From Paenibacillus curdlanolyticus YK9 (GTDB lineage: Bacteria; Bacillota; Bacilli; Paenibacillales; Paenibacillaceae), in assembly GCF_000179615.1 (NCBI RefSeq), contig NZ_AEDD01000004.1:124001-188000 (forward strand): a stretch of 64,000 nucleotides of DNA. The letters run 5' to 3'. The translations under genes were made by a program, and so were the position numbers. Shown here one piece after another: positions 14,858-53,730 of this stretch; the stretch's first letter is position 1, and the number at the start of each line of letters is the position of its first letter. The notes under the pieces were generated by a model. The model saw nothing but the letters and a program-made list of their open reading frames with translations, did no database searches and was not told the origin of the DNA.

Positions 14858-14868
14858 TAAGACGGCCG

Positions 14869-34998: not shown

Positions 34999-35005
34999 TC
35001 CCGGT

Positions 35006-35187: not shown

Positions 35188-35370
35188 TAACGGACCGAGG
35201 AGCCGTTATTTGCTCGAAATCAGCTCTACAATCAATGTAACGGACCCAGCGGCCGCTATTTGGTGTAAATGCGCCACAAAACTATACTATTCCGTGGAAT
35301 AGCGGCGCTCAGGTCCGTTACAATTTCGAAAGCCCGCAAATTCGCCATATAGCGGCTATACGGTCCGTTA
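35188..35370. repeat. Dyad TAACGGACC element, copy 1
   Basis: Motif units of about 24 bp (TAACGGACC, then GCCGCTATTT) lie direct at 35188 and 35238 and inverted with ends at 35320 and 35370. Start-to-start spacings are 50, 59 and 50 bp, so the whole is symmetric about 35279. The same design occurs at 53547-53730. Confidence 0.9.
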
Positions 35371-35540
35371 GCGTTCCATTAGCAGCGCGAATCCCCCCTT
35401 ATGCCTATTCCCCCGCCGCTTCCCCGCTTTAGCGCACATCCCCCGCTCTATTCGCTCAATGTCAAAGGTTCAGCCCTCCCGTCTCTCCATCTCCAGCCGA
35501 GTGACAATATTTCTGTCTCCGACTCTGCGCCCAAACCTGC

Positions 35541-35546
35541 TATAAT
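35541..35546 (+). promoter_or_regulatory. Extended -10 box of the queF promoter
   Basis: TGCTATAAT, a perfect -10 hexamer with TGn extension. No clear -35 box is seen. It places the transcription start about 60 nt upstream of the riboswitch. Confidence 0.6.
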
Positions 35547-35611
35547 AGATACCGCGTGTCGAATTGGCACGAAATCCGAGCCCTCCATCCATCGAGCTGG
35601 CAGCGGCAAGG

Positions 35612-35657
35612 TAGAGGTTCGCAAACTTCCCTCTCTAAAAAACTAAGCATAAAGGAG
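35612..35657 (+). promoter_or_regulatory. preQ1-I riboswitch
   Basis: AGAGG (35613-35617), loop TTCGCAAAC, CCTCT (35630-35634), A-rich tail AAAAAA and CTAAG, which is the preQ1-I consensus. The ribosome site AAAGGAG (35651-35657) follows at once, so control is probably translational. The ligand preQ1 is the product of the QueF enzyme encoded next. Confidence 0.93.
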
Positions 35658-35666
35658 AATGACATT

Positions 35667-36164
35667 ATGGCAGGAAGACAACATGAGGAATTGGGCGATC
35701 TAACGCTCCTCGGCAACCAAGGAACCAAATACCCGTTCGAATACGCGCCAGGCGTACTGGAGACGTTCGACAACAAGCATCCGTATCGCGATTATATGGT
35801 CAAATTCAACTGTCCAGAGTTCACAAGCCTATGCCCGATCACGGGCCAGCCGGACTTCGCGACGATCTATATCAGCTACATTCCCGATATCAAAATGGTA
35901 GAGAGCAAGTCGCTCAAGCTGTACCTGTTCAGCTTCCGCAACCATGGCGATTTTCACGAGGATTGCATGAATATCATCATGAACGATCTCATCGCCCTCA
36001 TGGACCCTCGCTACATCGAGGTGTGGGGCAAATTCACGCCACGCGGCGGCATCTCGATCGACCCGTACTGCAACTACGGCAAGCCGGGCACCAAATACGA
36101 GCAAGTGGCAGAGCAGCGCTTGTTCCAGCATGATATGTACCCGGAGAAAGTCGATAATCGTTAA
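35667..36164 (+). CDS. queF: NADPH-dependent 7-cyano-7-deazaguanine (preQ0) reductase
   Basis: Enzyme of 165 aa, unimodular YkvM-type QueF, reducing preQ0 to preQ1 for queuosine in tRNA. The catalytic cysteine is in [16 protein letters not shown], followed by [20 protein letters not shown], the QueF motif. Start set by AAAGGAG 9 nt ahead of the ATG and by the riboswitch. The queCDE genes are not in the window, so queF stands alone here. A terminator follows. Confidence 0.97.
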
Positions 36165-36173
36165 CGCTTAATG

Positions 36174-36270
36174 ACGAATACAGGTTTTACAAACAACAAA
36201 CCCAGTACCTTGTCGGTACTGGGTTTGTTGTTTGCTGTAAAAAGGAAAATAGAGTTGAACGTCATTGCTT
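36174..36270 (+). repeat. Direct repeat R1 flanking the IPT/TIG gene, contains queF terminator
   Basis: Roughly 97 nt running from ACGAATAC through the stem CCCAGTACC/GGTACTGGG to GAGTTGAACGTC. A clearly homologous copy, R2, lies at 38918-39014 on the far side of the IPT/TIG gene. Confidence 0.85.
36190..36233 (+). terminator. Rho-independent terminator of queF
   Basis: AAACAACAAACCCAGTACC pairs with GGTACTGGGTTTGTTGTTT around a 5-nt loop. Confidence 0.85.
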
Positions 36271-36408
36271 CATACTGCCAAAACTACTCCAGCTTTCAAA
36301 ATGTGAAAGACATGCCCGACTTTCGTCTTTTTGGAATTGCTCTAATTTTACTGGGATTTTTATCCGATAAAATGTTGTTGTGAACTATATTTAGAGGAGA
36401 GAATTGAG

Positions 36409-38865
36409 TTGAGAAGTTTAATAAAAAACAGAGGCTTAAATAAGATTTTACTTAGTTTCCTGAGCGTATTGGTAGTTTTAAGTGTAATTACATGTATTCC
36501 GCGAGTAAATGCTGCAGTTAATCCAACAGTAACGTCGTTGTCTCCAAATAACAGCATTTTAGCCGGCGGAATACCCGTTTATGTCAACGGTAGTAATTTT
36601 ACTTCCGGATCCAAAGTTTATTTCGGATCGGTTCAGTCAACAAGCGTAACTTACGAATCAAATACCAGACTCACAGCAACTGTTCCACCGGGTACCGCAC
36701 TTGGATCCGTGGACATTACGGTTGTTAAGACGGATGGGACACAAGGCACGCTGGTCAATGGCTTTTCCTATGTGACTCCGCCGCCACCACCTCCTCCCGT
36801 TGTAACATCGTTGTCTTCGAATAGCGATAATCTTACAGGCGGAAAATCCATTTATGTCAACGGCAGTAATTTCGCTTCCGGATCCAAAGTTTTCTTTGGT
36901 GCCAATGAAGCGACCAATGTATCTTTTGTCTCCAACGCCAGGCTCCAGGTAACCGTACCTGCCAGCGGATCGGCGGGGACAGTTGATGTTACCGTTCGTA
37001 AACCCGATGGAACTTCAGGAACCCTTCCTAATGGCTTCACCTATGCTGTTCCGGTTCCGGCGCCTCCCGTTGTAACATCGTTGTCTCCGAACAGCGATAG
37101 CCTTACAGGCGGAAAAGTCATTTATGTCAACGGTAGTAATTTCACTTCCGGATCTAAAGTTTTCTTTGGCGCCAATGAAGCAACGAATGTATCTTTTGAA
37201 TCCAACATCAGGCTCCAGGCAACCGTACCTCCCAGCGGATCGGCGGGGACAGTTGATGTTACCGTTCGTAAACCCGATGGAACTTCAGGAACCCTTCCTA
37301 ATGGCTTCACCTATATTGTTCCGGTACCAGTACCTCCCGTTGTAACGTCGGTGAATGAGAATAACTGTATTTTAACTGGCGGAAAAGCCGTTTATGTCAA
37401 CGGTAGTAACTTCACTTCCGGATCAAGAGTTTTCTTTGGCCCCAATGAAGCGACCAATGTGTCTTTTGAATCCAACATCAGGCTTCAGGCAACCGTACCT
37501 GCCGGAGTATCGCTAGGCGCAGTTGATGTTACCGTTCGTAAACCCGATGGAACAACAGGAACGCTTCCCAATGGCTTCACCTATATTGCTCCACCACCGC
37601 CACCTTCTCCCGTTGTAACGTCGGTGAGTGAGAATAACGGTTATTTAACTGGTGGAACATCCGTTTATGTCAACGGTAGTAATTTCACTTCCGGATCAAG
37701 AGTTTTCTTTGGCCCCAATGAAGCGACCAATGTGTCTTTGGAATCCAGCACCAAGCTTCAGGCAACCGTACCTGCTAGCGGATCGGCGGGCGCAGTCAAC
37801 GTAACCGTCATAAGTGCTAGCGGAACGCAAGGGCTGCTCGCGAATGGCTATACGTATAAGTTGTATCCAACCCCTGTCATTGATCAGGTAACTCCGAATA
37901 GCGGACTAGTGACGGGCGGAGAAACGATTACGATTCAAGGCAGCAACTTCTTCATCGGATTAAAAGTGTACTTCGGTACGACAGAAGCTGTTGTTAGCAG
38001 CATTACGAGTACACAACTGAACGTCGTCTCGCCAGCAAGCAGTACGATTGGCCCTGTCGATCTTAAAATTGTAAACACCGATGGAACACAAGGAAGTAAG
38101 TCCAATGGCTACACTTATCTCGCGTTGCCATCACCTGTTATCAGTCAGGTAACTCCGAATAACGGTCTAACAGCTGGCGGCGAGCATGTCTTTATTAGGG
38201 GCAGCAACTTCCAAAATGGTGTAAAAGTATTCTTCGGCGCCAATGAAGCCTCGATTGTTACTTATTATGCCGACGGTTATTTAGAGGTTGTAGCTCCTGC
38301 AACGTTAACTGCTGGCGCGGTTGATGTCCAACTGACGAATCCTGATAATCAATCTGCAACACTGCCGGCTGCCTATACTTACAACAGCTCGCCTGATCCT
38401 AACGAAAGAATAGATACGCTTAATGATGTGGGAGAAGTAATCATTACTGGCATTACTTATCCTTCCATGACGGATGCCCGCGTAAATTATGGTGCCGGTG
38501 AAAAGTGGCGCGTCACCAGCGGGGCTACAACGACCATTCAAGGAACCGTATATGATAATGGTGGAAACCCTCTTGCAAACGAGAAGCTAAGCTTCCTATT
38601 CCTTGGCCATGTTGGTCCGCTTACAGTGAAACAAGTGGAGTTTGTTACCGATGCTAATGGGCATTTCAGCTTTCAAATAATTATTCCACCTGCAGTAGGT
38701 GAAAATTGGTATGACCTTCCACTGTCTACCCATTATTTTGACATCGTCGATATTTTGTTCTTTGAAGGAACCTACTCCTCATCGAGCCTTTCTACTTCGA
38801 GACAAGTAGACAATACTAGCGACAGCACTATTTATCACCTTGATCATTCGTATTACCACGGTTAA
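36409..38865 (+). CDS. Secreted protein with seven IPT/TIG repeats
   Basis: Exported protein of 818 aa from a TTG start with AGAGGAGA 8 nt upstream. Signal KILLSFLSVLVVLSVITC and cleavage near VNA-A at residue 36. Seven immunoglobulin-like IPT/TIG domains of 87-91 aa start near residues 37, 130, 220, 310, 401, 489 and 576, each with a GG..VYVNGSNF-like strand and an NGFTY end; proline-rich linkers (TPPPPPPP) join the first ones. Residues from about 663 form a different C-terminal domain (TTIQGTVYDNGGNPLANEKL) like a carboxypeptidase-regulatory fold. No LPXTG or membrane anchor. Likely surface or matrix adhesin. Base composition is lower in GC than neighbours. Confidence 0.85.
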   Translation: MRSLIKNRGLNKILLSFLSVLVVLSVITCIPRVNAAVNPTVTSLSPNNSILAGGIPVYVNGSNFTSGSKVYFGSVQSTSVTYESNTRLTATVPPGTALGSVDITVVKTDGTQGTLVNGFSYVTPPPPPPPVVTSLSSNSDNLTGGKSIYVNGSNFASGSKVFFGANEATNVSFVSNARLQVTVPASGSAGTVDVTVRKPDGTSGTLPNGFTYAVPVPAPPVVTSLSPNSDSLTGGKVIYVNGSNFTSGSKVFFGANEATNVSFESNIRLQATVPPSGSAGTVDVTVRKPDGTSGTLPNGFTYIVPVPVPPVVTSVNENNCILTGGKAVYVNGSNFTSGSRVFFGPNEATNVSFESNIRLQATVPAGVSLGAVDVTVRKPDGTTGTLPNGFTYIAPPPPPSPVVTSVSENNGYLTGGTSVYVNGSNFTSGSRVFFGPNEATNVSLESSTKLQATVPASGSAGAVNVTVISASGTQGLLANGYTYKLYPTPVIDQVTPNSGLVTGGETITIQGSNFFIGLKVYFGTTEAVVSSITSTQLNVVSPASSTIGPVDLKIVNTDGTQGSKSNGYTYLALPSPVISQVTPNNGLTAGGEHVFIRGSNFQNGVKVFFGANEASIVTYYADGYLEVVAPATLTAGAVDVQLTNPDNQSATLPAAYTYNSSPDPNERIDTLNDVGEVIITGITYPSMTDARVNYGAGEKWRVTSGATTTIQGTVYDNGGNPLANEKLSFLFLGHVGPLTVKQVEFVTDANGHFSFQIIIPPAVGENWYDLPLSTHYFDIVDILFFEGTYSSSSLSTSRQVDNTSDSTIYHLDHSYYHG
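36797..37612 (+). repeat. Near-identical 270-bp tandem repeats inside the IPT/TIG gene
   Basis: The phrase CCCGTTGTAAC recurs at 36796, 37066, 37336 and 37609, a period of 270-273 bp. Long blocks of repeats 2 and 3 are identical or almost so at DNA level, indicating recent duplication or gene conversion; repeats 1, 6 and 7 are more diverged. Confidence 0.85.
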
Positions 38866-38917
38866 TTGAGATAATCGACATGCCATAAACTGCGACCCTC
38901 TTACGAGGATCCTGCAA

Positions 38918-39014
38918 ACGAATACCGTACAGTAAACAACAGCCCCAGTACCACATCGGTACTGGGGCTGTTGTTTACTGTACAAATGTAAGAACGAGTT
39001 GAACGTCGTACTTG
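38918..39014 (+). repeat. Direct repeat R2 flanking the IPT/TIG gene
   Basis: Second copy of R1: ACGAATACC, stem CAGCCCCAGTACC/GGTACTGGGGCTG, then GAGTTGAACGTC. Stem changes are compensatory relative to R1 (CAGCCCC/GGGGCTG against CAAACCC/GGGTTTG), so both hairpins stay paired. Confidence 0.85.
38931..38984 (+). terminator. Rho-independent terminator of the IPT/TIG gene
   Basis: AGTAAACAACAGCCCCAGTA pairs with TACTGGGGCTGTTGTTTACT, an extended stem of over 20 bp with a short loop; the downstream tract is not T-rich, so efficiency may rest on the stem. Confidence 0.75.
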
Positions 39015-39110
39015 TAAATGAGCCAACTGGGAACCTATCATCATTTGTGCGATAATGGGAGAACTAGCTTGAGGCAGCCGGTTGAGCCGCTTCTAGGAGG
39101 AGCCAAGACG

Positions 39111-40136
39111 ATGAAATGGATGAACAAACGACTATTTCGCTGGGCGATCGCCATCATAGCCTTATATGCGATCTTGTTTTTGATGCCGATGCCCTACTAC
39201 TTATATCAGCCTGGCACGGTGGAGCCGCTGTCCGCTGCGGTAAGCGTAGCCGATGGCAAGAAGGACAGCAAAGGCAGCTTCAACCTCACGACCGTGCTGT
39301 CCGTACGAGCTAACAACGTCGCGATGGTCATCTACGGCTTGTTCGCCAAGGATACGGAGCTTCGCAAAGCTTCCGACGTGAAGGGCAATCTTAGCGATGC
39401 GGAGTACATGCGGGTGCTCGATCATATGTGGTCCTCCTCCCAGCGAACTTCCGTCGCCGCGGCGATGAAGGAGGCTGGCTTGCCCGTAACGCCGACCGTT
39501 ACCGGCCAGTTTCTGCGGATGCTTCAGCCAGGTTCCAAGGCCAAGGGCGTGCTGGAGGTCGGAGATGTGCTGCTCAAGGTGGATGAGCGCACCGTGAAGG
39601 AGCTTCCGGAGGTTATTCACTATTTGGGCAGCAGCAAAAAGGTCGGAGACACCGTAACGCTCACCTACCTGCGCGATGGCGAGCAGCATACCGGACAAGT
39701 GAAGCTGATCGGGATCGACGGAGCGAATCAGCCCGGCCTGGGAGCCGTGTTCGAGCCCGAGTATGCCGTATCTTCCACCCGTAACGTCACATTTGCCGAG
39801 TCGGAGATCGGCGGGCCGTCCGCTGGACTTATGTTTTCGCTGGAAATTCTCGACCAACTGCTGCCGGAGGATTTGACGCATGGCCTCAAAGTAGCCGGAA
39901 CCGGCACGATTGACCTTAACGGAAAAGTAGGGCAAATCGGGGGCATGCGGGATAAGATCGTCGCCGCGCATAAGGCGGGCGTCGAGCTGTTCTTCTGTCC
40001 GAAGGACACGGACACATCAAGCACGAACGCACAGGATGCAATCGATGAAGCGAAGAAACGCGGCTACAACCTCCGCATCGTGCCTGTCGCGACGCTTCAG
40101 GAAGCCGTCGATTACTTGCACAACTGGAAAGCCTAG
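39111..40136 (+). CDS. PDZ and Lon-like serine protease (SepM/YlbL family)
   Basis: Membrane-anchored protein of 341 aa: one N-terminal helix (WAIAIIALYAILFLMPMPYY), a PDZ domain (KAKGVLEVGDVLLKVDERTV) and a C-terminal S16 domain with nucleophile serine in EIGGPSAGLMFSLEIL and the lysine region GGMRDKIVAAHKAGVELFF. The family trims exported peptides outside the membrane (SepM matures a competence pheromone in streptococci). AGGAGG lies 10 nt before the ATG at 39111. AraC regulator gene follows after 12 nt. Confidence 0.9.
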   Translation: MKWMNKRLFRWAIAIIALYAILFLMPMPYYLYQPGTVEPLSAAVSVADGKKDSKGSFNLTTVLSVRANNVAMVIYGLFAKDTELRKASDVKGNLSDAEYMRVLDHMWSSSQRTSVAAAMKEAGLPVTPTVTGQFLRMLQPGSKAKGVLEVGDVLLKVDERTVKELPEVIHYLGSSKKVGDTVTLTYLRDGEQHTGQVKLIGIDGANQPGLGAVFEPEYAVSSTRNVTFAESEIGGPSAGLMFSLEILDQLLPEDLTHGLKVAGTGTIDLNGKVGQIGGMRDKIVAAHKAGVELFFCPKDTDTSSTNAQDAIDEAKKRGYNLRIVPVATLQEAVDYLHNWKA

Positions 40137-40148
40137 GGGGAAAACGCA

Positions 40149-41042
40149 ATGCCGCAGCCGTCTGGCGATACGAGGCACGAGCATGATTTTATGAAGCTGG
40201 CGATTAATCCATCCCCTAGCGGAAGCGAGCTCGCCGTGCTGTTCAGCGGGGAAGGACGTCCGCATCCGCTGCATACGATCGGGCCCGCTATTCACGATTA
40301 CGTGCTCGTCCACACCGTGCTCGCCGGACGCGGCGTCTATGAAGTGCGCGGGCATGCCTACCCTTGCCGGGCGGGCGACTCGTTCATCATCTTCCCCGGC
40401 GAGCTGTTCTCCTACCAAGCCGACGAGCATGAGCCTTGGCATTACGTCTGGGTCAGCTTCGTCGGGCCCGCTAGCAGGCAGCTGCTAGCGAACGTCGGCG
40501 TAACGCCGGATTGCCCGATCGTCTCGGGCAGCAGCCTCCCCGACATCCGCATGCTCTACCGTTCCTTGCAGGACAGCCTGTCTCCCGCAGGAGACGCGCC
40601 GCTCGCCGATCTCGAATCGGCAGGCTGGCTTCGCCTGCTGCTCGGCAGCTTTGGCCGCGCGAACGGAGCCGGACGGCTGGCGAAGCCGGACGATACGACC
40701 GCCATCGATCGCCAGATCGAGCAAGCGATTCGGTTCATGTCGCTCCACTATACGCAGCAGGTATCAATTGACCAGCTGTCCCGAACGCTTGGCTATCATC
40801 GCACGCACCTAAGCCGCATGTTCAAGCGAACGACGGGCCTGTCGCCTAAGCAATATTTGATGACGATCCGGCTCGAACGCGCCCAAACGCTGCTCGCCAG
40901 CACAGCGATGCCGATCGACCAAGTCGCCTCGGCGGTCGGGTTCAACGACCCGCTGTATTTTTCCAAGAAGTTCAAAAGCGCTACTGGCTTCGCGCCTTCG
41001 GATTATCGGAAGACGGCGCTTAGCGTGAAGCACGAGGAATAA
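40149..41042 (+). CDS. AraC family transcriptional regulator with cupin sensor
   Basis: Regulator of 297 aa. The N-terminal cupin-like part (YVLVHTVLAGRGVYEVRGHA, then GDSFIIFPGELFSYQADE) would bind a small ligand, often a sugar. The C-terminal pair of helix-turn-helix motifs is clear: IDQLSRTLGYHRTHLSRMFK and IDQVASAVGFNDPLYFSKKF. GGGGG lies 8 nt before the ATG. It is co-directional with the protease gene, but no sugar gene is adjacent, so targets are unknown. Confidence 0.88.
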   Translation: MPQPSGDTRHEHDFMKLAINPSPSGSELAVLFSGEGRPHPLHTIGPAIHDYVLVHTVLAGRGVYEVRGHAYPCRAGDSFIIFPGELFSYQADEHEPWHYVWVSFVGPASRQLLANVGVTPDCPIVSGSSLPDIRMLYRSLQDSLSPAGDAPLADLESAGWLRLLLGSFGRANGAGRLAKPDDTTAIDRQIEQAIRFMSLHYTQQVSIDQLSRTLGYHRTHLSRMFKRTTGLSPKQYLMTIRLERAQTLLASTAMPIDQVASAVGFNDPLYFSKKFKSATGFAPSDYRKTALSVKHEE

Positions 41043-41046
41043 TACG

Positions 41047-41092
41047 AAGGGGTGTCCCAAAGCCTTGACGGCTGAGGGGCATCCCCTATTTT
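41047..41092 (+). terminator. Rho-independent terminator after the AraC gene
   Basis: AGGGGTGTCCC pairs with GGGGCATCCCCT, with inner AGCC/GGCT, followed by ATTTTTG. Confidence 0.8.
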
Positions 41093-41190
41093 TGCGCTGC
41101 AATGGTTGGCGTTATGTTTGTGTACGGACATTGCTGCAGCGTATGTGTGTCGTATTTAAGGTAACGTTGGTGCGCACAACCGGCTGCTCA

Positions 41191-41382
41191 TTGCAGTTCA
41201 TACAATCGAATCAAATGCGCGCGCAGCAGTTAGACGGTGTCATTGCAAATCGTGCAACGGGACAAGGCTGCTTTCTATGTTTTGGGCACAACGCGCCTCT
41301 TCCCGACCTATCTCGTTGTATGAACTGCAATGGGAGTCTCTGGAGCAAGCCATCTCCCCCTTTCCCAATGTACAAAGTGCAA
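41191..41382. repeat. Four-palindrome TTGCA element, copy B
   Basis: Related 15-nt palindromes start at 41191 (TTGCAGTTCATACAA), 41243 (TTGCAAATCGTGCAA), 41316 (TTGTATGAACTGCAA) and 41368 (ATGTACAAAGTGCAA). Spacings are 52, 73 and 52 bp, the same as in copy A. The unit lies between convergent genes. Apart from it, the 560-nt gap from 41043 holds only the terminators. Confidence 0.8.
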
Positions 41383-41450
41383 CGGCACGGCAATAAGCTA
41401 AGTAGCTACCTTGAAACCTACAAAATGCCACAACCCCTTCTTCCATTGAA

Positions 41451-41495
41451 AAACCAAAACAAGCCCACAGCTCCAACCCCTACTGGGGCGGGCTG
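41451..41495 (-). terminator. Probable terminator of the sulfur-salvage operon
   Basis: Minus strand AGCCC pairs with GGGCT around CCCC/GGGG inner pairing, then TTGTTTTGGTTTTTC. It is about 110 nt past the glutaredoxin stop; there is a bulge, so it is a moderate candidate. Confidence 0.45.
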
Positions 41496-41605
41496 CAGGC
41501 CTGCTCAGTTCTATATTGATCTTAGATCTATCTCTATCTCGGTCTCTCCAGCTCCGCCTCGCTTAATGCTCTCTATCCGTTACCTCTTTCTTCTTACTAC
41601 AAATG

Positions 41606-41872
41606 TTACCCTACCTTCACCGCGCCCACCAATGTCTGCAAATGCTCAAGGTCCAAATCCGTCCAAGCCTCGAATTTGCCTGCGCCGCCTACCTCGACGA
41701 CCGGCACGTACCGGATGCCGTATTTGACCTCCAGCACGTCGCGCAGCGCATCGTTGTTATCGACGCTAACGTTCTCGTACGCGATGTTGTTCGCCTCCAG
41801 CAGCGACTTTACTTGCGCGCAATGGTGACAGCCTGTTTTGCTCCACAAAACTACTTTTTGATTCGATGACAT
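41606..41872 (-). CDS. ytnI: Glutaredoxin-like protein (YtnI/CmoI type)
   Basis: Thioredoxin-fold protein of 88 aa with redox motif GCHHC in LWSKTGCHHCAQVKSLLEAN and cis-proline in IRYVPVVEVGG. GGGAGGA lies 8 nt before the ATG at 41870-41872; the frame stays open upstream but runs inside the monooxygenase gene and is not used. It is the last gene of the sulfur-salvage operon, 28 nt after the YtnJ-like gene. In Bacillus subtilis the same partner pair is ytnI-ytnJ. It probably reduces a sulfenate or disulfide product. Confidence 0.85.
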   Translation of the reverse strand: MSSNQKVVLWSKTGCHHCAQVKSLLEANNIAYENVSVDNNDALRDVLEVKYGIRYVPVVEVGGAGKFEAWTDLDLEHLQTLVGAVKVG

Positions 41873-41900
41873 CTCAAAATTCCTCCCGCTATTCAAATGG

Positions 41901-46183: not shown

Positions 46184-47205
46184 TCGGCCGCCACCTCCGT
46201 GAACGCTTCACTTAGCAGCTCGAACGACCGCAGCCTTTTGCCAAAATCGCGTACCGCCGTCGTGACGACGAACTCCTCCACGCCAAACCGCTCCTTCGCC
46301 TCAAGCAGCTGCCGGCGCACGGATTCCTTCGTCCCGCGAATGATTTCCGCCGGCTTCTCCTCGACCGTGAACTTCTCATTCGTCTGGCGCCCGAATTCCT
46401 CCGCCTGCTCCAGCGTGCCGACCGTCAGCGTGCGCCCGCTCGCCAAGTGAAGCTTGACGATCTTGTACTCGCCAGCCAATACGTTCGCCTCTTCCTCCGT
46501 ATCCGCAACGATAAGCGACAACGCCAAAATCGGCTCCGGCGCCTTGCCCCCCGACCGATCAAAGCTCGCCCGATACGTATCGAGCGCTTCCTTCGCCACC
46601 GCTTCATCGCTGTTGATGAACAGGGAGAAAACGTAAGGGTAAGCCAAGTCAGCCGCGATCTGCGCACTGGCTACGCTAGCTCCCAGCAAATACAGCTCTG
46701 CCGGGTTCGCAACGGACGGCGCGGCACGAAGACCTGCCAGCGGATGATCCGCTTCGAGCGCATTGTTCAGAAACTTTGCCAGCTCCTTCACCTTGTCGCC
46801 AAGGTCGCGAGGGCCGGAGTCCCCGCCGCCCGACTGCTGGAGCGCGCGCGTTGAACGCGGCAGTCCGCCCGGTGCGCGGCCGATGCCCAGATCGACGCGG
46901 CCTGGCGCAAGCGAAGCGAGCACGTTAAAATTTTCCGCTACTTTATAAGGGCTATAGTGCTGCAGCATAACGCCGCCTGATCCGATGCGAATCGTCGACG
47001 TGCGCGCCAGCAAATAGGAAATTAACACCTCAGGGGACGAGCCCGCGACTTGATTGGAATCATGATGCTCCGATACCCAAAACCGCGTGTAACCAAGCTT
47101 CTCGGCATATTGCGCCAGCTCCACTGTACGCTGCAGCGCCTCCACCCCTGTCTCTCCTTCGTAGATTGGACTTTGGTCAAGAATACTTAATCGAACAGTC
47201 GTCAT
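46180..47205 (-). CDS. ytmO: Luciferase-like flavin monooxygenase (YtmO/CmoO-like)
   Basis: LLM-class enzyme of 341 aa of the single-component bioluminescence subgroup: LSILDQSPIYEGETGVEALQ at the start, GYTRFWVSEHHDSNQVAGSS, SGGVMLQHYSPYKVAENFNV and GRVDLGIGRAPGG. YtmO has the same length and position after tcyN in Bacillus. Start at the ATG at 47203-47205 with GGAG 8 nt upstream. It likely oxidises a sulfur intermediate, but its reaction is not defined from sequence. Confidence 0.85.
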   Translation of the reverse strand: MTTVRLSILDQSPIYEGETGVEALQRTVELAQYAEKLGYTRFWVSEHHDSNQVAGSSPEVLISYLLARTSTIRIGSGGVMLQHYSPYKVAENFNVLASLAPGRVDLGIGRAPGGLPRSTRALQQSGGGDSGPRDLGDKVKELAKFLNNALEADHPLAGLRAAPSVANPAELYLLGASVASAQIAADLAYPYVFSLFINSDEAVAKEALDTYRASFDRSGGKAPEPILALSLIVADTEEEANVLAGEYKIVKLHLASGRTLTVGTLEQAEEFGRQTNEKFTVEEKPAEIIRGTKESVRRQLLEAKERFGVEEFVVTTAVRDFGKRLRSFELLSEAFTEVAAE

Positions 47206-47233
47206 CGCTGTCGCTCCTTTCATTGTCTTGCAA

Positions 47234-47986
47234 TTAAATGGAATAGCTCCACTCCTGCGAATACCGCTTCAGAAATTGGCGGGTCCGCTCTTCCTTCGGC
47301 GATCCGAACAGCTCCTCCGGCTTGCCCTCCTCGACAACGACGCCGCCATCCATGAACACAACGTGGTTCGCAACATCGCGGGCGAAGCCCATCTCATGCG
47401 TGACGACGATCATCGTAATGCCTTCCTTCGCGATGCGGCGGATGACTTCGAGCACCTCGCCCACCAGCTCGGGATCAAGCGCTGATGTCGGCTCGTCGAA
47501 CAGCAGCACCTCGGGATTGAGCGCCAACGCGCGCGCGATGCCGACCCGCTGCTGCTGACCACCCGATAGACTGCTCGGATAAGCATCCAGCTTGCTGGCG
47601 AGCCCTACCTTCTCTAGCACTTCGAGACTAATGCGGCGCGCCTCGTCCTTCGGCAGCTTGCGTACGATGACAAGCCCCTCCATCACGTTCTCTAGCACCG
47701 TCTTATGCTTAAACAAGTTATAGTTCTGAAACACCATCGCCGTTCGCAGGCGCAAGGCGTGAATATCCTTTTTCGTCGCTTTCTTCGCATCGAGCTGATA
47801 TTCGCCAATGGCGATCTGCCCCTCCGCCGGGCGCTCGAGATAGTTGATGCAGCGCAGCAGCGTCGTCTTGCCAGAGCCGCTCGGGCCGAGAATGGCAACA
47901 ACCTCGCCCTTCTCTACCGTCAGATCGATTCCTCGGAGCACCTCTTGTTTGCCGAACGATTTGCGTATCGCGGATAATCGAATCAT
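47234..47986 (-). CDS. tcyN: Amino-acid ABC transporter ATP-binding protein (TcyN-like)
   Basis: Polar amino-acid importer ATPase of 250 aa. Walker [17 protein letters not shown], signature [18 protein letters not shown], Walker [21 protein letters not shown] and H-loop [13 protein letters not shown] are intact. The start overlaps the permease gene by 4 nt. With the two permeases and the binding protein it forms a complete importer for cystine or S-substituted cysteines (by analogy with TcyJKLMN). Confidence 0.92.
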
Positions 47987-48693
47987 GCTACGCCTCCTCT
48001 GTTATAAAGTGAAATCCGCTTCTCCAGCACGCTCGTCGATTTCTCGATAAGCAGCGTAAGCGCCCAATAAATAATCGCCGCGGCGATGAATGCCTCAAAA
48101 TACTTCCAGTTCGTCATCGCCACGATGTTCGCTTGCCCGAACACCTCGATGACCGGCACGGTAAACGCCACCGTCGAGCCATGCAGCATGCCGATCAAAG
48201 CGTTCGACAGGTTCGGCAAGCTAACAGCCAGCGCCTGCGGAAATACAATGCGGCGGATCGCCTGCGTACGCGTCATGCCTACGGACAGCGCTGCTTCGAG
48301 CTGCCCCCGGTCAACCGCCAGCATGCCGGAGCGGACAATCTCGGACATGTATGCGCCCGCCGTAATCGAGAAGGCAATAAGAACAAAGACGAGAATCGGG
48401 ATTTGCACCGATGTGAACGACCATCCGAAGGAAGCCGATAGCCAATCAATAAGCTTGGGAAGTCCAAAATAGATCAGGAACAAATGCATCAGCATCGGCG
48501 TTCCTCGGATGAATTTGACGTAGAACGACGCGATCGGATGCAGCACCGGCACGCGATAGACGCGCAGAAGCGCGGTTACCGCTCCGATAAGAAAGCCCAA
48601 GAGCACCGAAACGACGGTAATAAGCAGCGTCGTCGGAAGCGCGGATAACAGCTTCCAGAACGCTTCTGCAATAAACGCGGGATCAAGCGTCAT
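47983..48693 (-). CDS. tcyM: Amino-acid ABC transporter permease (TcyM-like)
   Basis: HisM/GlnP-family permease of 236 aa with about five helices. [20 protein letters not shown] and the EAA loop [24 protein letters not shown] are diagnostic. Overlaps the second permease gene upstream by 4 nt and the ATPase gene downstream by 4 nt. Confidence 0.92.
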
Positions 48694-49607
48694 CTTCCTT
48701 CACCGCCCTCTGATAATGGGATGCGCTCGTTCCGCAGCCGATCTGATTTTCCGAGCGGAATGCCGTATTCATCCAAGCTTGGAGCTGCGCCAGCCAGCGC
48801 AGGGCCTTCCTCGCCAATTGGCTGCCGATAGCCCGGAAACCGCTGAACGAGTCCGCCCGCGGAATCCCACCATCGAGACAAGAAGGCCGGCTTGGACGGC
48901 TCGCCCCAGCTGTTCGATTGCCGCGCCTCATGGCGCAGCAGCCGCCGCTCCGCGAGCTTGAACAAGCTTTCGAGCACCATGCTCACCGCGAAGTAGATCG
49001 CCGACAGAGCAATGTATACCTCGATAAAATGCTGCGTTGCCTGCCCGAGCGTCTGCGACTTGCCCGTCATCTCCATGACGCCGAGCGAGAAGGCAAGCGA
49101 CGTATCTTTTAAGTTCGCGATCACAAGATTGGCAACGACCGGCATCGAGACAGCCACAGCCTGCGGCAGCACAATGCGAAGAAACGACTGATAGCCCGTC
49201 ATGCCGATCGCAAGCGCCGCCTCCGTCTGCCCGCGATCGACAGCCCCAACGCCTGCGCGGATCGTCTCCGAAATAAACGCCCCTGTATGCAAGCCATAGG
49301 TCAGAATAACGAATACGAGCACAGGAAGCTTGGAGACGTCGACTCCAACGCCCTTAAGCAGCTCCGGCAAGCCGTAATAGATCAGAAACAGCTGAATCAG
49401 AATCGGCGTTCCTCGGAAAAAGGAGACGTAGACCCGCGACACCGTCCGCAATATCGGAACGTTATACATGCGAGGCAGCGCGATGAGAAAGCCGACGAGG
49501 AAGCCGAGCAGCATGGAGGCCGCCACGATAAACAACGTAATCTCCAAGTAGCCAAGCAGCTTCGGAATGAATTGCCACAAATAATGAATGTCGAACCTTC
49601 TGCCCAT
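48690..49607 (-). CDS. tcyL: Amino-acid ABC transporter permease (TcyL-like) with C-terminal extension
   Basis: HisM-family permease of 305 aa; VYVSFFRGTPILIQLFLIYY and the EAA loop QTEAALAIGMTGYQSFLRIV match the partner permease. The permease core ends near residue 220; about 80 further residues rich in Gly, Pro, Arg and Trp follow (LSRWWDSAGGLVQRFPGYRQ). Members of this family are normally around 235 aa, so the tail is additional and probably cytoplasmic. I see no known domain in it and no frameshift. Confidence 0.9.
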   Translation of the reverse strand: MGRRFDIHYLWQFIPKLLGYLEITLFIVAASMLLGFLVGFLIALPRMYNVPILRTVSRVYVSFFRGTPILIQLFLIYYGLPELLKGVGVDVSKLPVLVFVILTYGLHTGAFISETIRAGVGAVDRGQTEAALAIGMTGYQSFLRIVLPQAVAVSMPVVANLVIANLKDTSLAFSLGVMEMTGKSQTLGQATQHFIEVYIALSAIYFAVSMVLESLFKLAERRLLRHEARQSNSWGEPSKPAFLSRWWDSAGGLVQRFPGYRQPIGEEGPALAGAAPSLDEYGIPLGKSDRLRNERIPLSEGGEGR

Positions 49608-49650
49608 CGCGCTTCCCTTCTTTCCTCGTTAACCTTGTTAACGTATGCGT

Positions 49651-50505
49651 CTATTTGCTCTCAGCCAGTCCTTTGGTGTAATCCGCGCCCAGCCATTGCA
49701 GGCTCAGCTTCGACAGTGTACCGTCCGCCTTTACTTCACGAATCGCTTCGTCCAATTGATCCGCCAGCTCTTGGCTGTCTTTGCGGAGCACGAACAATAC
49801 GTCGGATTGAATGAGCGGCTCGCCTACCGTTTTGAGCGCTTCCTTGCCATCTGCGTCCGTATAGAACCGCAGGGCGAAGTCCGTTGATAGCGTCGCATCA
49901 ATCCGGCCGCTTTCGATTTGCTGCACGAGATCGTTCGAGCCGTTGCTGCTGAATATCAAATCATAGGCATCTTTATGTTCTTCCTTATACTTCTTTAGGA
50001 AGTAAGCCTGATTGCTCGTTGGGCTCACTTGGATTTTCTTGCCCTTCAGATCCTCGATCGATTTCACATCGTTGTTCTTAGCACTGACCGCTACCTTCGA
50101 GAGGAAGATGCTATAAGGTTCTTTGTTGAACAGGAACTTCGCTTCCCGCTCCGGATTTTTTTCCATTTGATGCGCGATGACATCAATCTTGTTCGTCTCG
50201 AGGCTGAGCAGCAGATTCGAGAAGTCCATCGTCTTGAATTCGAACTCGTAGCCATCCAGCCGTTTATCCAGTTCACGGACAAGCTCGACATCGAAGCCCG
50301 TCAGCTTGCCATTTTCATCAATGAAGCAGACGCCAGGGAACTGCGTCCCTGTACCGATAATAATTTTTTTCACTTCCTTCGCCCCGCCCGCATCAGCAGA
50401 TGCGCTTGCTTCGCCTGACGCTGGCTTGCTCTCCGAGCCGCAAGCGGTAAAGATAAGCGTAAATACGAGTAGTGCTGCGATTACTAGTGAATGTTTCCGT
50501 TTCAT
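49651..50505 (-). CDS. Amino-acid ABC transporter substrate-binding lipoprotein (TcyJ/TcyK-like)
   Basis: Lipoprotein of 284 aa: signal LVIAALLVFTLIFTACGSES with lipobox FTAC. The SBP type 3 body has ENGKLTGFDVELVRELDKRL and DLKGKKIQVSPTSNQAYFLK. GGAGGGG lies 6 nt before the ATG at 50503-50505. Bacillus has two such genes in the operon (tcyJ, tcyK); only one is present here. It is the first transporter gene after the LysR regulator. Confidence 0.9.
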   Translation of the reverse strand: MKRKHSLVIAALLVFTLIFTACGSESKPASGEASASADAGGAKEVKKIIIGTGTQFPGVCFIDENGKLTGFDVELVRELDKRLDGYEFEFKTMDFSNLLLSLETNKIDVIAHQMEKNPEREAKFLFNKEPYSIFLSKVAVSAKNNDVKSIEDLKGKKIQVSPTSNQAYFLKKYKEEHKDAYDLIFSSNGSNDLVQQIESGRIDATLSTDFALRFYTDADGKEALKTVGEPLIQSDVLFVLRKDSQELADQLDEAIREVKADGTLSKLSLQWLGADYTKGLAESK

Positions 50506-50630
50506 TGTGAACCCCTCCGTCGTGGATATGACCACATGTCTATGACTTAATTCATACAATTCACACTGTTTAAGTATGATTTATATTTGCAGTGTACCAT
50601 CGCCCATTGCCTCGTGGTTATCGATCGCTT
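50506..50630 (-). promoter_or_regulatory. Gap between the LysR gene and the transporter operon, probable LysR target
   Basis: AT-rich 125-nt gap. The minus strand holds TTGTATGAATTAAGT and CATACTTAAACAGTGTG, with CATAC near one end and GTATG near the other (about 20 nt apart), a dyad of the T-N11-A kind that LysR proteins use. Exact promoter boxes are not clear. Confidence 0.4.
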
Positions 50631-51533
50631 CTATACATGGATTGATTGTTTCGATAAGGAGCTCCCGCGCCCGATATCAAGCAGCTGTCTGGCCAGCTCC
50701 ACGCTTTCGCCTTTGCGCGTAAGCACGCAGGTGCGAAGCGTCAGAATACCGAGCGAGCGGATCGCAACCGGCACGAGCTTCCCGGCCTCCACCTCCGAGC
50801 GTACGCTCAGCTCCGGCAGAAACCCGATGCCGAGCCCAGAAGCGATAAGCTTTTTGGCCGTCTCCATATTGTCGATCTCATACGCGATAACCGGGGGGCG
50901 CTCTAACGAATCGAACAGGCGGTGAATTTTCATCCAATCGAGTGAGCCGCATTCGAAAAAGATAAACGGCTCAAGCGCCGCTTCCTCCATCGTCACCTCC
51001 TGCTGCTTCGCGAAAGGATGACCCGGCTCAACGAATAACCGGATACGGTCTTCGTAGAACAGGTTCGAATCCATCAGCGGATGCGTCGTGCCGCGGACCA
51101 AGCCGATATCAAGCTCGCGATTTTCCAAATGCTGAATGATCGCATCGGTCGATGCCGTAATCAGCTTCACATGCAGCTCGGGGTAAGCCTGCTTAAGCTG
51201 GGGAAGCACGCCTGGAAGCAAATAATTGGCCGCCGTCACCGTACAGCCGATCCGAAGCTCCCGAACATCGGCTGTCTTGCGCTGATGCAGATGCTGCTTG
51301 CCTTTTTTGTACGATTGCATAATTTGCTGGGCGAATGGGAGAAACTGCTTGCCCTGCTCTGTTAACGAAAACTGCTTGCCTTCCCGATCGAACAGCTTCG
51401 CATCCAGCTCCCGTTCCAACGATTGGATGCGCGCCGTCACCGAGGGCTGGGATAGGAACAGTGCATCCGCCGCCTTGTTGAAGCTATTGAAATGAATGAC
51501 ATAGACGAATGCCTCAATGTTTTCAATATTCAT
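50631..51533 (-). CDS. ytlI: LysR family regulator (YtlI/CysL-like) of the sulfur operon
   Basis: Regulator of 300 aa: N-terminal winged helix-turn-helix (IEAFVYVIHFNSFNKAADAL, FLSQPSVTARIQSLERELDA) and a two-lobed effector domain (ELRIGCTVTAANYLLPGVLP). YtlI activates the ytmI operon in Bacillus; here the gene is co-directional with and just upstream of the transporter genes rather than divergent. Its transcript has a leader with an intrinsic terminator, so its own synthesis is probably attenuated. Confidence 0.85.
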   Translation of the reverse strand: MNIENIEAFVYVIHFNSFNKAADALFLSQPSVTARIQSLERELDAKLFDREGKQFSLTEQGKQFLPFAQQIMQSYKKGKQHLHQRKTADVRELRIGCTVTAANYLLPGVLPQLKQAYPELHVKLITASTDAIIQHLENRELDIGLVRGTTHPLMDSNLFYEDRIRLFVEPGHPFAKQQEVTMEEAALEPFIFFECGSLDWMKIHRLFDSLERPPVIAYEIDNMETAKKLIASGLGIGFLPELSVRSEVEAGKLVPVAIRSLGILTLRTCVLTRKGESVELARQLLDIGRGSSLSKQSIHV

Positions 51534-51580
51534 TGCGATCCCCTCTCCTTGTACAAACTCATTTTCTACCTTTTGGCTAT

Positions 51581-51624
51581 AAAAAAAAGCACGACAAAGT
51601 CCGCTTGCGCAGAGTTGTCGGCTT
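51581..51624 (-). terminator. Leader terminator (attenuator candidate) of the LysR gene
   Basis: In the minus-strand leader CGACAA pairs with TTGTCG, extended by imperfect ACTCTGC/GCGGACT pairing, followed by eight T residues. Upstream leader DNA forms CCGG-ATAA-CCGG. It lies after the promoter at 51699-51726 and before the ribosome site, so the gene needs read-through. Confidence 0.7.
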
Positions 51625-51698
51625 CCGGTTATCCGGTCAGTCGGATTATAGGCTCGAGATTAATTCATACCTTTTCGCTTGGAATACTAGGTAATTAG

Positions 51699-51726
51699 AT
51701 TATACATCTTTCTTTTCGAATGTCTA
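51699..51726 (-). promoter_or_regulatory. Sigma-A promoter of the LysR gene
   Basis: Minus strand TAGACA (51721-51726), 16 nt, TATAAT (51699-51704). Immediately upstream ATTCCTTT and AAAGGAAT form an inverted repeat (51726-51751) that could bind a regulator such as CymR. Confidence 0.7.
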
Positions 51727-51799
51727 TTCCTTTTTTCTGACCGAAAGGAATTAGGCGGATTTTGTCGAAACTAAGTAGGTACCAACGAATACGAAATTC

Positions 51800-53449
51800 A
51801 TGCTCGAGCAGGTGATATCGATTATTTATGCTTCTGTAACAAGGCGCAAATATAAGCTGACGCTTCCTATGCTGCTGTCCGCGCTGACAGCATTGGCCGT
51901 ACTGCTGACGCTTGTCGTTACCTTGACAGCCTCTTATCATTCCCAGCGACAATCGCTGTACGATACGACGCTGCAACTCAATAATACCAGCGCAACCCGA
52001 ATGAGCTTGACGATGGATTCACTGTTCCAATCCATGCATGCCAGCTTGCAAACAGCGTCCGCCTTCTTGCGCGACAACCCTTCGCTATCCGAAGCCGGGG
52101 TGCTGGACCATCTGGAATATTCGCGCAAGACGAGCAGCTATTTCAACTCGATCTTCTGGGTGAATAACAAAGGCATCGTGAAGAGCATCTCGCCCCCTGC
52201 CATCGCGCTTAAGGGAAAGAAGCTGACGACTCAAGCCTCGCAAGAGGCGCTCGCCGCTAAAGCGCCTTACGTCTCCACGCCGTATATTAGCGCGACTGGA
52301 CGATTGATCGTCTTAATTACCGAGCCGGTGTTCGACAAGCAAGGCAGCTACCAGGGCTATATTGGCGGAACGATTTATTTGCATGAGAAAAATATTTTGA
52401 GCACGATCTTCGGCAGCAACCTGATCGACAGCGCCGGCTCCTATTTCTATGTCGTCGACACGACAGGCAAGCTGGTCTTCCATCCCGACCCGGATCTCCT
52501 TGGCGATGACGTATCAGCGAACGACGTCGTCCGCAAGCTGATGAAGGGCTTTAACGGCGAAGAAAAGGTCATCAATACGCAAGGTGAAACCTTTCTCGCC
52601 GGCTTCTCCAACGTAACGAGCAACGGGTGGGGCATCGTCGTGCAATCGCCTGTCGAAACGATCTATGAACAGTTGAACCGGCAAATTCGTTCGACTGCCA
52701 TCTATATGGGATTGCCGTTTCTGATTATTATGCTGCTTGCGATGTTCATAGCCCGCAGGCTCGCAATGCCGTTCGCGGCCTTGGCGGATTATATTGGACA
52801 CGCTGCTGACGGGCAATCCTTCTCCCCGCCCATCAAGCGAAACCATTGGAACCGCGAAGCCTTTGTGCTGACCCAGACCGTACTCGGCGCTGTCGAATCG
52901 ATGCGCAAGCAATCTGAGGAACTGACCCACGCGGCATTGGTCGATCCGCTGACAGGGCTGCTCAACCGGAGAGCGTTGGAAGAAGAGATGAGCAAGCGAG
53001 CAGAGAATGAAGAGCCGTTCAGCCTCGTCGTGCTCGACATCGATCGATTCAAATGCGTCAATGATACGCTGGGCCATCAGGTCGGAGACGAGGTTTTGAA
53101 GAGCTTGGCGGACGTGCTTAATCATTCCGTGCGCGCCCATGATATGTGCTGCCGCTTCGGCGGCGAAGAGTTTGTCATCCTGCTGCCGGGCAGCGGCGTC
53201 GAGGAAGCATTCCACCTTGCCGAACGCATTCGCTTAACCATCGAGAAGACGGCTACGCCAGCAAATCGGGTCATTACCGTTTCGCTTGGCATCGCCGCGT
53301 ATCCGCAGCATGCTGCCGACACGAACACGTTGTTTAAGCTGGCGGATGAAGCGCTCTATGCTGCGAAAGAGGCTGGCCGCAACCGGACGATGCTTGCCGG
53401 CCAGGCATCGTCGAGCGATTTGCAATCGAAGCTGCCGTTCAGCAGATGA
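51800..53449 (+). CDS. Membrane diguanylate cyclase with dCache sensor
   Basis: Protein of 549 aa making cyclic di-GMP from GTP. Helix 1 (MLLSALTALAVLLTLVVTLT), an extracytoplasmic dCache-like domain (residues about 55-300, with VYFYVVDTTGK-like core SYFYVVDTTGKLVFHPDPDL), helix 2 (AIYMGLPFLIIMLLAMFIAR), then a GGDEF domain. The catalytic motif is GGEEF in CRFGGEEFVILLPG and an inhibitory I-site RxxD (RAHD) lies five residues before it, so product inhibition is expected. No ribosome site is obvious at this start. Ligand unknown. Confidence 0.9.
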   Translation: MLEQVISIIYASVTRRKYKLTLPMLLSALTALAVLLTLVVTLTASYHSQRQSLYDTTLQLNNTSATRMSLTMDSLFQSMHASLQTASAFLRDNPSLSEAGVLDHLEYSRKTSSYFNSIFWVNNKGIVKSISPPAIALKGKKLTTQASQEALAAKAPYVSTPYISATGRLIVLITEPVFDKQGSYQGYIGGTIYLHEKNILSTIFGSNLIDSAGSYFYVVDTTGKLVFHPDPDLLGDDVSANDVVRKLMKGFNGEEKVINTQGETFLAGFSNVTSNGWGIVVQSPVETIYEQLNRQIRSTAIYMGLPFLIIMLLAMFIARRLAMPFAALADYIGHAADGQSFSPPIKRNHWNREAFVLTQTVLGAVESMRKQSEELTHAALVDPLTGLLNRRALEEEMSKRAENEEPFSLVVLDIDRFKCVNDTLGHQVGDEVLKSLADVLNHSVRAHDMCCRFGGEEFVILLPGSGVEEAFHLAERIRLTIEKTATPANRVITVSLGIAAYPQHAADTNTLFKLADEALYAAKEAGRNRTMLAGQASSSDLQSKLPFSR

Positions 53450-53470
53450 TGGACATGAGCTTATGAACAA

Positions 53471-53520
53471 ATGGAAGAGGGTGTCCCCAAAGCGTAAGCT
53501 TGGGGGACACCCTCTTCCAT
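53471..53520 (+). terminator. Terminator after the diguanylate cyclase gene
   Basis: ATGGAAGAGGGTGTCCCC pairs perfectly with GGGGACACCCTCTTCCAT, an 18-bp stem; the T-tract is poor. Confidence 0.7.
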
Positions 53521-53546
53521 TTGTAAAAACCGTCTGTTCGAGATTT

Positions 53547-53730
53547 TAACGGACCGAGCAGCCGCTATTTGATCATAATCCGGCACATCTGTGTTCTTAC
53601 GGACCGAGCAGCCGCTATTGGGCCAATATCGCCCTCACTAGGCAGCAAAATGACTAAATAACGGCTGTGGGGTCCGTTACGTTTTGCCGCAGGCACTTTT
53701 AGAGGGTGATAGCGGCTGTGGAGTCCGTTA
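53547..53730. repeat. Dyad TAACGGACC element, copy 2
   Basis: Direct motif units at 53547 and 53597 (second begins TTACGGACC) and inverted units ending at 53679 and 53730 (ACGGCTGTGGGGTCCGTTA; AGCGGCTGTGGAGTCCGTTA). Spacings 50, 59 and 51 bp match copy 1 at 35188-35370. Confidence 0.9.

What the first reader, a model, noticed from the sequence alone, without database searches (positions are those of the whole stretch)
35188..53730. Two copies of a 183-184 bp dyad element built from four TAACGGACC motifs
At 35188-35370 and 53547-53730 two direct and two inverted copies of a roughly 24-bp motif lie at spacings 50/59/50 and 50/59/51 bp. The motif begins TAACGGACC and ends GCCGCTATTT. DNA between motifs differs, so the layout is what is conserved, not a simple duplication. 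Both copies sit in noncoding DNA near promoters (queF, TetR cassette). A protein binding four sites, a transcribed cruciform or a non-autonomous mobile element are all possible.
Basis: seen in the sequence. Interest (0 to 1): 0.72.

Follow-up and report, generated by a model that had tools for sequence, protein, structure and literature searches.

The report
Four-site DNA-wrapping repeat of Paenibacillus
Paenibacillus chromosomes carry many copies of a rigid 183-letter noncoding element with four protein-binding-like sites and a ten-letter rhythm of the kind seen in DNA coiled around protein, and its function and protein partner are unknown.

Summary
The two window elements belong to a family whose inner-dyad pattern matches in 100 of 392 sampled genomes of the order, at about 50 places in this genome and about 140 in the richest. 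Four copies of a 24-bp motif lie ++-- at 50/59/50; the central 59 holds in 44 of 44 four-site clusters here. Spacer sequence is near random between copies, yet A/T content oscillates every ~10.15 bp. Mirror positions show no base-pair covariation. No target-site duplication of 3 bp or more stands out. Eighteen elements, both window ones included, have a counterpart at the same place in a close relative; 48 of 52 measurable inter-motif distances are unchanged while flanks carry many indels. Best reading: double-stranded DNA with four sites for an unknown sequence-specific protein that wraps ~180 bp in nucleosome-like fashion, kept by selection on geometry, rarely between divergent genes. IS3- and IS110-family insertion sequences use the motif as a landing site; one carries the motif's 8-mer in its noncoding region. 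The cruciform reading is rejected, current mobility is not supported, and the binding protein was not identified.

The parts
35188..35370 (.). element 1, 183 bp, 50/59/50, dyad centre at 35279; upstream of the preQ1 riboswitch and queF
   Evidence: same place in relative G002
35188..35211 (+). motif 1 of element 1
35238..35261 (+). motif 2 of element 1
35297..35320 (-). motif 3 of element 1
35347..35370 (-). motif 4 of element 1
53547..53730 (.). element 2, 184 bp, 50/59/51 (one base longer in the last spacer than its counterpart in G002)
53547..53570 (+). motif 1 of element 2
53597..53620 (+). motif 2 of element 2
53656..53679 (-). motif 3 of element 2
53707..53730 (-). motif 4 of element 2
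35212..35346 (.). the three spacers of element 1 (35212-35237, 35262-35296, 35321-35346; motifs 2 and 3 lie between them): free in sequence, A/T-phased about every 10 bp in the family

Best explanation
A double-stranded DNA nucleoprotein element. Shown: four copies of a bipartite motif (TAACGGAC-N6-G-N-C-S-Y-TATT) in fixed geometry about a dyad, with A/T-rich positions about every 10.15 bp in between and little constraint on the rest; the geometry is kept at the same loci between two species while neighbouring noncoding DNA collects indels. Inferred: a sequence-specific, multimeric DNA-binding protein (a dimer or tetramer arranged about the dyad) grips the four sites, whose starts lie 41 and 91 bp from the dyad (4.0 and 9.0 turns at 10.15 bp per turn, so on one face), and wraps or bends about 180 bp of DNA around itself in a nucleosome-like way. 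Inferred further: the job is chromosomal (architecture, supercoil absorption or insulation) rather than control of one promoter, because copies sit beside unrelated genes, are rare between divergent genes and common between convergent ones. Insertion sequences exploit the motif as a landing pad.
For: Geometry: 37 of 44 four-site clusters here exactly 50/59/50, the central 59 in 44 of 44. In named loci of other species 78 of 112 clusters are clean ++--; 66 of the 78 are exact and 72 of 78 have the central 59 (those loci were chosen by one 50-bp motif pair, so only the 59 and the other 50 are independent). In 264 kb of own sequence the only motif site beyond three elements is one of 10 bits. Phasing: mean per-element spacer power at 10.15 bp 0.083 v 0.011 shuffled (10.2 bp: 0.079 v 0.012); one profile per genome (28 labels), period 10.15, bootstrap 10.10-10.15 within 8.5-13 bp; spacer identity between own copies median 41%. 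Selection: 18 syntenic pairs with G002, 48 of 52 measurable intervals of equal length, against 261 indel events in 4,274 aligned flank bases; motif core 96% identical, other motif positions 73%, spacers 61-78%, A/T-phase spacer positions keep their class in 88% against 73-77% for other spacer positions (14 of 21 pairs used). Context: 31 convergent, 44 tandem, 5 divergent of 80. No family is enriched among 95 neighbouring proteins (at most 3 of 95).
Against: No protein was identified and no binding data exist. Presence is patchy: 292 of 392 genomes of the order lack the pattern, odd for a core chromosomal function unless motifs drift or the system is dispensable. On spacers alone a 12-bp period is almost as strong (0.077 per element, 0.237 on the mean profile); it vanishes when all columns are used (0.010 v 0.204 at 10.15), so I read it as an alias of the spacer layout. 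The A/T profile has one off-phase peak (position 47) and only weak ones inside the motifs near 11-13 and 61-63. In tandem gene pairs there is no lean to the upstream gene's end (24 of 44 nearer). Flank indels are over-counted where flanks no longer align (identity 0.74), and equal net length cannot reveal compensating indels. An isolated 19-bit motif exists in G002. Phased A/T runs could reflect intrinsic curvature alone. Tandem arrays and copy numbers from none to over 100 suggest some spreading history.
Confidence: 0.6

Rival explanations
1. A strong DNA gyrase site: gyrase wraps ~130 bp and acts where positive supercoils gather, as between convergent genes; the repeats would be a Paenibacillus counterpart of gyrase-binding BIME-2.
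For: Convergent-gene bias; symmetric phased A/T pattern; E. coli gyrase sites have phased GC and BIME-2 elements are bound by gyrase (PMC6379681, passages read); gyrases of three species show 10-11 bp GC periodicity within 120 bp of cleavage sites (PMC12324340, passages read), a range that includes 10.15.
Against: The E. coli gyrase motif has a 10.75-bp period and a central ~36 bp without it over 130 bp; here spacer power at 10.75 bp equals shuffled (0.011 v 0.012), the rhythm runs through the centre and spans 183 bp, and an 8-bp core occurs four times. Gyrase is near universal (recalled) but the element is patchy.
Confidence: 0.12
2. A non-autonomous mobile element (MITE): motifs 1-2 and 3-4 are the two transposase-binding ends of a lost transposon, and 50/59/50 is what transposition needs.
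For: Inverted ends, copy number from none to well over 100, tandem arrays, patchy distribution, differing motif position 8 between genomes, two direct sites per end as in some transposons (recalled). The ends TA...TA would hide a 2-bp TA duplication of the mariner/IS630 kind (recalled).
Against: No clear longer target-site duplication (102 elements; small excesses of 4 v 0.9 at 3 bp and 2 v 0.3 at 4 bp); no copy with a gene inside was noticed in the loci read; 3 of 3 own and 3 of 3 G002 elements in ~225 kb are shared; among 37 own copies only one pair exceeds 80% in spacers, a tandem one; Y1 transposase absent from this genome; 0 in viral contigs for the two-motif pattern, no match of one element each in plasmids and phages.
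Confidence: 0.15
3. A transcribed structured RNA or a cruciform in which motif 1 pairs with 4 and 2 with 3.
For: Single strands fold well because of the inverted motifs (z -7.0 and -4.7).
Against: No covariation: 61.9% v 61.7% paired after shuffling, covariation score reached by 95 of 500 shuffles; RNAalifold covariation term 0; over all mirrored columns of 37 own copies pairing is slightly below what column composition predicts (0.54 v 0.57); no Rfam match at either element at gathering threshold and none for element 1 up to E=1.
Confidence: 0.04
4. A recombination, replication or plasmid-type site (attachment, partition or terminator-like) bound by a dedicated protein, with wrapping serving a synapse rather than chromatin.
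For: Fixed multi-site geometry resembles recombinase or partition sites (recalled).
Against: Dozens of copies per chromosome, symmetric, beside unrelated genes, no enriched neighbour gene.
Confidence: 0.09

Closest known systems
REP / BIME repeats of Gammaproteobacteria
   Same: High-copy extragenic inverted-repeat elements, used as landing sites by IS3- and IS110-family insertion sequences (PMC1525189, passages read); REPs too are scarce between divergent genes (recalled).
   Different: REPs are 20-40 bp palindromes with a GTAG-type tag and a RAYT transposase (PMC2817692 passages; PMC3733652 start of abstract in listing). Here four 24-bp sites in rigid 183-bp geometry, free spacers with 10-bp phasing, no Y1 transposase in the genome.
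DNA gyrase binding motif (E. coli)
   Same: Long, symmetric, phased A/T-G/C pattern read as wrapping (PMC6379681, passages).
   Different: 10.75-bp period in the arms, separate central part, 130 bp, degenerate; here about 10.15 bp, through the centre, 183 bp, with four strict cores.
Nucleosome-positioning DNA (recalled)
   Same: About 10-bp A/T v G/C oscillation around a dyad with little other sequence conservation.
   Different: Bacterial, with four sequence-specific motifs; no histone was looked for.
bcr1-type repeats of the Bacillus cereus group (recalled; listing only)
   Same: High-copy noncoding repeat restricted to one Firmicute lineage.
   Different: Recalled as a structured mobile repeat; here no clear duplication and no covarying structure.

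Membership tests
REP / BIME (RAYT-associated) | Cognate Y1 (RAYT) transposase in the genome | tested here: not met
   PF01797: 0 matches in own genome and in 5 of 5 same-genus genomes searched; 6 of 40 genomes searched have one
REP / BIME (RAYT-associated) | Short palindrome kept by stem pairing | tested here: not met
   Mirror pairs between motifs do not covary. Inside each motif a column facing an invariant C varies, position 17 being G 74%, C 22%
REP / BIME (RAYT-associated) | High-copy, extragenic | tested here: met
   (9 of 101 overlap an ORF of 110 aa or more called by a simple rule; 12 of 101 unclassified at locus edges)
MITE | Terminal inverted repeats | tested here: met
   TAACGGAC ... 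GTCCGTTA
MITE | Target-site duplication | tested here: inconclusive
   No clear duplication of 3 bp or more in 102 elements (3 bp 4 v 0.9 and 4 bp 2 v 0.3 above shuffled means); a TA duplication is hidden by the TA...TA ends
MITE | Insertional polymorphism between relatives | tested here: not met
   3 of 3 shared in ~225 kb at 86% identity; not tested genome-wide or between strains
MITE | Cognate autonomous transposon | tested here: inconclusive
   None noticed in loci read; not an exhaustive search
Structured RNA | Covarying helices | tested here: not met
DNA gyrase strong site | ~10.75-bp phased arms around a separate cleavage centre (E. coli) | tested here: not met
   10.15 bp, bootstrap 10.10-10.15; no power at 10.75; A/T peak at the centre. 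Only the E. coli motif was used as yardstick
DNA gyrase strong site | Gyrase binding or cleavage in vivo | not testable with these tools
   needs an experiment
Target of IS110/IS1111 RNA-guided insertion | IS copies at one fixed position of the target | tested here: met
   4 of 4 'IS B' copies at GGTCCGTT|G (one end of the IS examined)
Target of IS110/IS1111 RNA-guided insertion | Matching guide in the IS noncoding RNA | tested here: inconclusive
   GGTCCGTT at L083:1243 in the region downstream of the transposase; chance for an 8-mer on either strand of ~290 bases about 1% (my arithmetic); that it is a guide is inferred

The most novel reading that the evidence does not exclude
A bacterial counterpart of a nucleosome-positioning element: a dispersed 183-bp sequence selected for geometry and 10.15-bp phasing, on which an unknown Paenibacillales chromatin protein assembles through four specific contacts and wraps about 18 helical turns, marking or insulating intergenic sites across the chromosome.
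Probability: 0.35. Interest if true: 0.88.

Novelty: new variant of a known kind. Interest (0 to 1): 0.7.

Why it matters
If right, it gives a tractable handle on sequence-addressed DNA wrapping in bacteria: dozens of natural sites per genome, congeners without detected copies as controls, and a geometry (50/59/50, about 10.15 bp) that predicts which changes should break it. It also adds a lineage far from the REP-bearing Proteobacteria (recalled) in which IS3- and IS110-family insertion sequences settle in a dispersed repeat.

Tried and rejected
RAYT/REP: rejected for this genome, no Y1 transposase. RNA or cruciform: rejected. MITE: no clear duplications, stable positions, not fully excluded. 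Autonomous transposon carrying the four sites as ends: the two-element locus L074 was checked; between its elements lie LysR-type and dapA-like genes (named by eye, no family search), no transposase seen. Extra-chromosomal origin: viral contigs 0 for the two-motif pattern; element 1 had no match in plasmids, element 2 none in phages; each element was tried in one collection only. Partner gene by neighbourhood: nothing enriched. Orthologous element at the queF locus in the other congeners: absent in G001, G003, G004, G005, whose upstream genes also differ, so no wider synteny test. Gyrase literature: one five-term search found 0 papers, a second found five.

Not in print, as far as searched: (PMC library only) listed no paper that, from title and abstract start, describes the element. 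One search found 0. One search (octamers) listed 20 of 1,065 papers, which look like primer or oligo matches from titles and were not read. Terms for Paenibacillus repeats listed general papers, seen as listings. PMC3733652 and PMC2817692 hold the word Paenibacillus 0 times.

Corrections kept in view: one search contained one pair offset by a base (L068/L238), one guessed pair (L085/L255), and a few doubtful pairings; one search repeats the count on 18 of those 21 pairs. One search prints 49 of 54; two intervals involve a motif that is unrecognisable in G002 (L238 motif 1, L246 motif 4), and I leave them out, giving 48 of 52. In one search element 2 is compared without allowing for its extra base. 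One search merges two genomes under one five-letter label (JAQZS). One search used a wrong motif length and was replaced.
Full report
Check of the observation. Both elements are present at the stated coordinates with the stated spacings. The window yields exactly eight hits to the 24-bp motif at up to 3 mismatches, all in the two elements, against zero in shuffles. The genome (G000, 5.45 Mb, 39 contigs) gives 76+64 hits to a looser motif pattern and 1+4 to the reversed control. In the own-genome loci fetched, the motif forms 55 clusters; 44 are four-site ++--, 37 of these exactly 50/59/50, the other 7 differing in a single outer interval, and the central 59 holds in 44 of 44; one three-site cluster has 58. 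A 6-base inner pair, searched with 11 allowed lengths, occurs 62 times against 7 for the reversed control; of the places listed (the list was cut) nearly all have one length, apart from three matches without the motif that I judge by eye to be chance and one real copy a base shorter.

Distribution. With the inner dyad pattern, 100 of 392 genomes of the order match, up to 138 forward and 144 reverse places in one genome, with reversed controls of 0-2. Genomes with one or two matches may be chance (G178 looks so by eye), and genomes without a match may hold drifted motifs. Presence is patchy within genera. In the wider class 15 of 398 match: ten from the same family, own included; one outlier outside the order (G438, 12+12, five listed inner dyads one or two bases shorter and with a CTTAG variant of the motif's right half; whether it has four sites was not checked); and four that look like unrelated sequence by eye. 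In named loci of other species, 78 of 112 clusters are clean four-site; 66 of the 78 are exactly 50/59/50 and 72 of 78 have the 59.

Anatomy. The motif is TAACGGAC, six variable bases, G, variable, C, S, Y, TATT; conservation stops about two bases outside the outer motifs. Spacers between own copies are near random (median identity 41% after choosing the better orientation). Over 102 elements (37 own, 65 named), however, A/T content peaks at positions 1, 20, 30, 40, 51, 70, 81 and 91, the last being the dyad; there is one off-phase peak at 47, and the turns near 11-13 and 61-63, inside motifs, are weak. Using spacers only, the best period of the mean profile is 10.1 bp, and per-element power at 10.15 bp is 0.083 against 0.011 shuffled. 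A 12-bp period is almost as strong on spacers alone (0.077) but drops to 0.010 against 0.204 when all columns are used, so I take it for an alias; 10.75 bp has none. With one profile per genome the period is 10.15 bp, bootstrap 10.10-10.15 within 8.5-13 bp, and the same without the own genome. The motif starts lie 41 and 91 bp from the dyad, 4.0 and 9.0 turns at that period; this arithmetic is mine.

Not RNA, not cruciform. On 52 distinct elements, aligned with gaps caused by one of them only, the nested pairing 1-4 and 2-3 has 61.9% standard pairs against 61.7% after shuffling, and the covariation score is reached by 95 of 500 shuffles. RNAalifold finds 14 pairs, 12 of them in columns at least 90% unchanged, with a covariation term of 0. 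In the own copies mirrored positions pair 0.54 of the time against 0.57 expected. Rfam has no match at the elements (both, element 1 only at the lax threshold). Good single-strand folding energies follow from the inverted motifs.

Selection on geometry. G002 is the closest relative among the five congeners held (queF region 96% identical; its contig lengths equal those of Paenibacillus sp. MMS18-CY102, so I take it to be that strain). Both window elements lie at the same place there. Over a ~225-kb stretch with 86% identity, three elements in each genome correspond, and none was gained or lost. In 18 syntenic pairs, 48 of 52 measurable inter-motif distances are identical and four differ by one base; two more distances involve a motif unrecognisable in G002 and are left out. 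The adjoining 183-bp flanks show 261 indel events in 4,274 aligned bases; poor flank alignment inflates that figure, and some flanks include coding sequence, but the contrast is large. In 14 of 21 pairs usable without gaps, motif-core columns are 96% identical, other motif columns 73%, spacers 61-78%, and A/T-phase spacer columns keep their A/T class in 88% against 73-77% for other spacer columns. Length and phasing are thus conserved while sequence drifts.

Context. Of 80 elements with a gene on each side, 31 lie between convergent, 44 between tandem and 5 between divergent genes (genes called by a simple ORF rule). Nine more overlap an ORF and 12 were too near a locus edge, 101 in all; the two window elements were left out of that count. 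In tandem pairs 24 of 44 are nearer the upstream gene's end, no lean. No protein family recurs among 95 neighbours beyond 3 of 95. This speaks for a general chromosomal role and against control of one pathway.

Insertion sequences use the motif. An IS3-family element ('IS A', rve domain) has four copies; three lie inside a motif with a 3-bp duplication and the fourth 44 bp from an intact element, without one. An IS110-family element ('IS B') has four copies, all at the TAACGG edge of a motif at GGTCCGTT|G (only this end of the IS was examined). A second IS110-family element ('IS C') abuts a motif in the three copies seen, not searched genome-wide. The noncoding region downstream of the IS B transposase contains GGTCCGTT. 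IS1111/IS110 elements are guided by a noncoding RNA with short target matches, downstream of tnp in IS1111 types (PMC11187229, passages), so this 8-mer is a candidate guide. The same two IS families, among five, target REPs in other bacteria (PMC1525189, passages).

Mechanism. The data fit double-stranded DNA gripped at four specific sites by a multimeric protein and wrapped between them. E. coli gyrase shows phased GC of period 10.75 bp flanking a separate centre (PMC6379681, passages), which the elements do not show, though a preprint gives 10-11 bp for three gyrases (PMC12324340, passages); gyrase stays a rival rather than the answer. A period below 10.5 bp is what left-handed, nucleosome-like wrapping gives (recalled, not tested). 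Which protein does it is unknown; gene-content comparison across carriers could not be run.

Verdict. The finding is a real, widespread, apparently undescribed (searches named in Tried and rejected) interspersed element. It behaves like REP/BIME repeats in copy number, position and IS targeting, but fails two of their tested defining features. I file it as a new variant of the interspersed-repeat kind, with a bolder reading, a bacterial nucleosome-positioning element, that the evidence does not exclude.

Noticed in passing
window 35608-35652 (+): preQ1 riboswitch (RF00522, 54 bits) just upstream of queF; separate from element 1.
   Followed up: no
window 22484-22572 (-): BsrC small RNA match (RF01410, 76.7 bits).
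   Followed up: no
window 53467-53524 and 38927-38983: 58-bp self-inverted repeats, 93% complementary; the first is of terminator type (GGGTGTCCCC...GGGGACACCC), and similar stretches lie near elements in L002, L006, L069 and L086, so a second dispersed hairpin family may exist.
   Followed up: no
window 34999-35087 and 35099-35189: An 84% identical ~90-bp direct repeat just left of element 1; no such stretch aligns in G002.
   Followed up: partly
L083:1154-1445 and L271-L274: IS110-family 'IS B': 4 of 4 copies inserted at the same edge of the motif, with the motif 8-mer GGTCCGTT in its downstream noncoding region, a candidate guide.
   Followed up: partly
L123, L171, L150, L156, L183, L195, L135; own C27:156128 and 156432: Tandem arrays of whole elements with units of about 244-470 bp; in L195 and L149 extra single motifs sit about 82 bp upstream.
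   Followed up: no
G438 (outside the order): Isolated carrier in the class, 12+12 pattern matches; five listed inner dyads are one or two bases shorter and have CTTAG in place of the TAT half of the motif; may be transfer or a deep relative.
   Followed up: no
window 14864-15320 and 36409-38865: A tandem repeat of about 50-bp period, and a TTG-start 818-aa ORF with internal repeats that look like IPT/TIG domains by eye.
   Followed up: no
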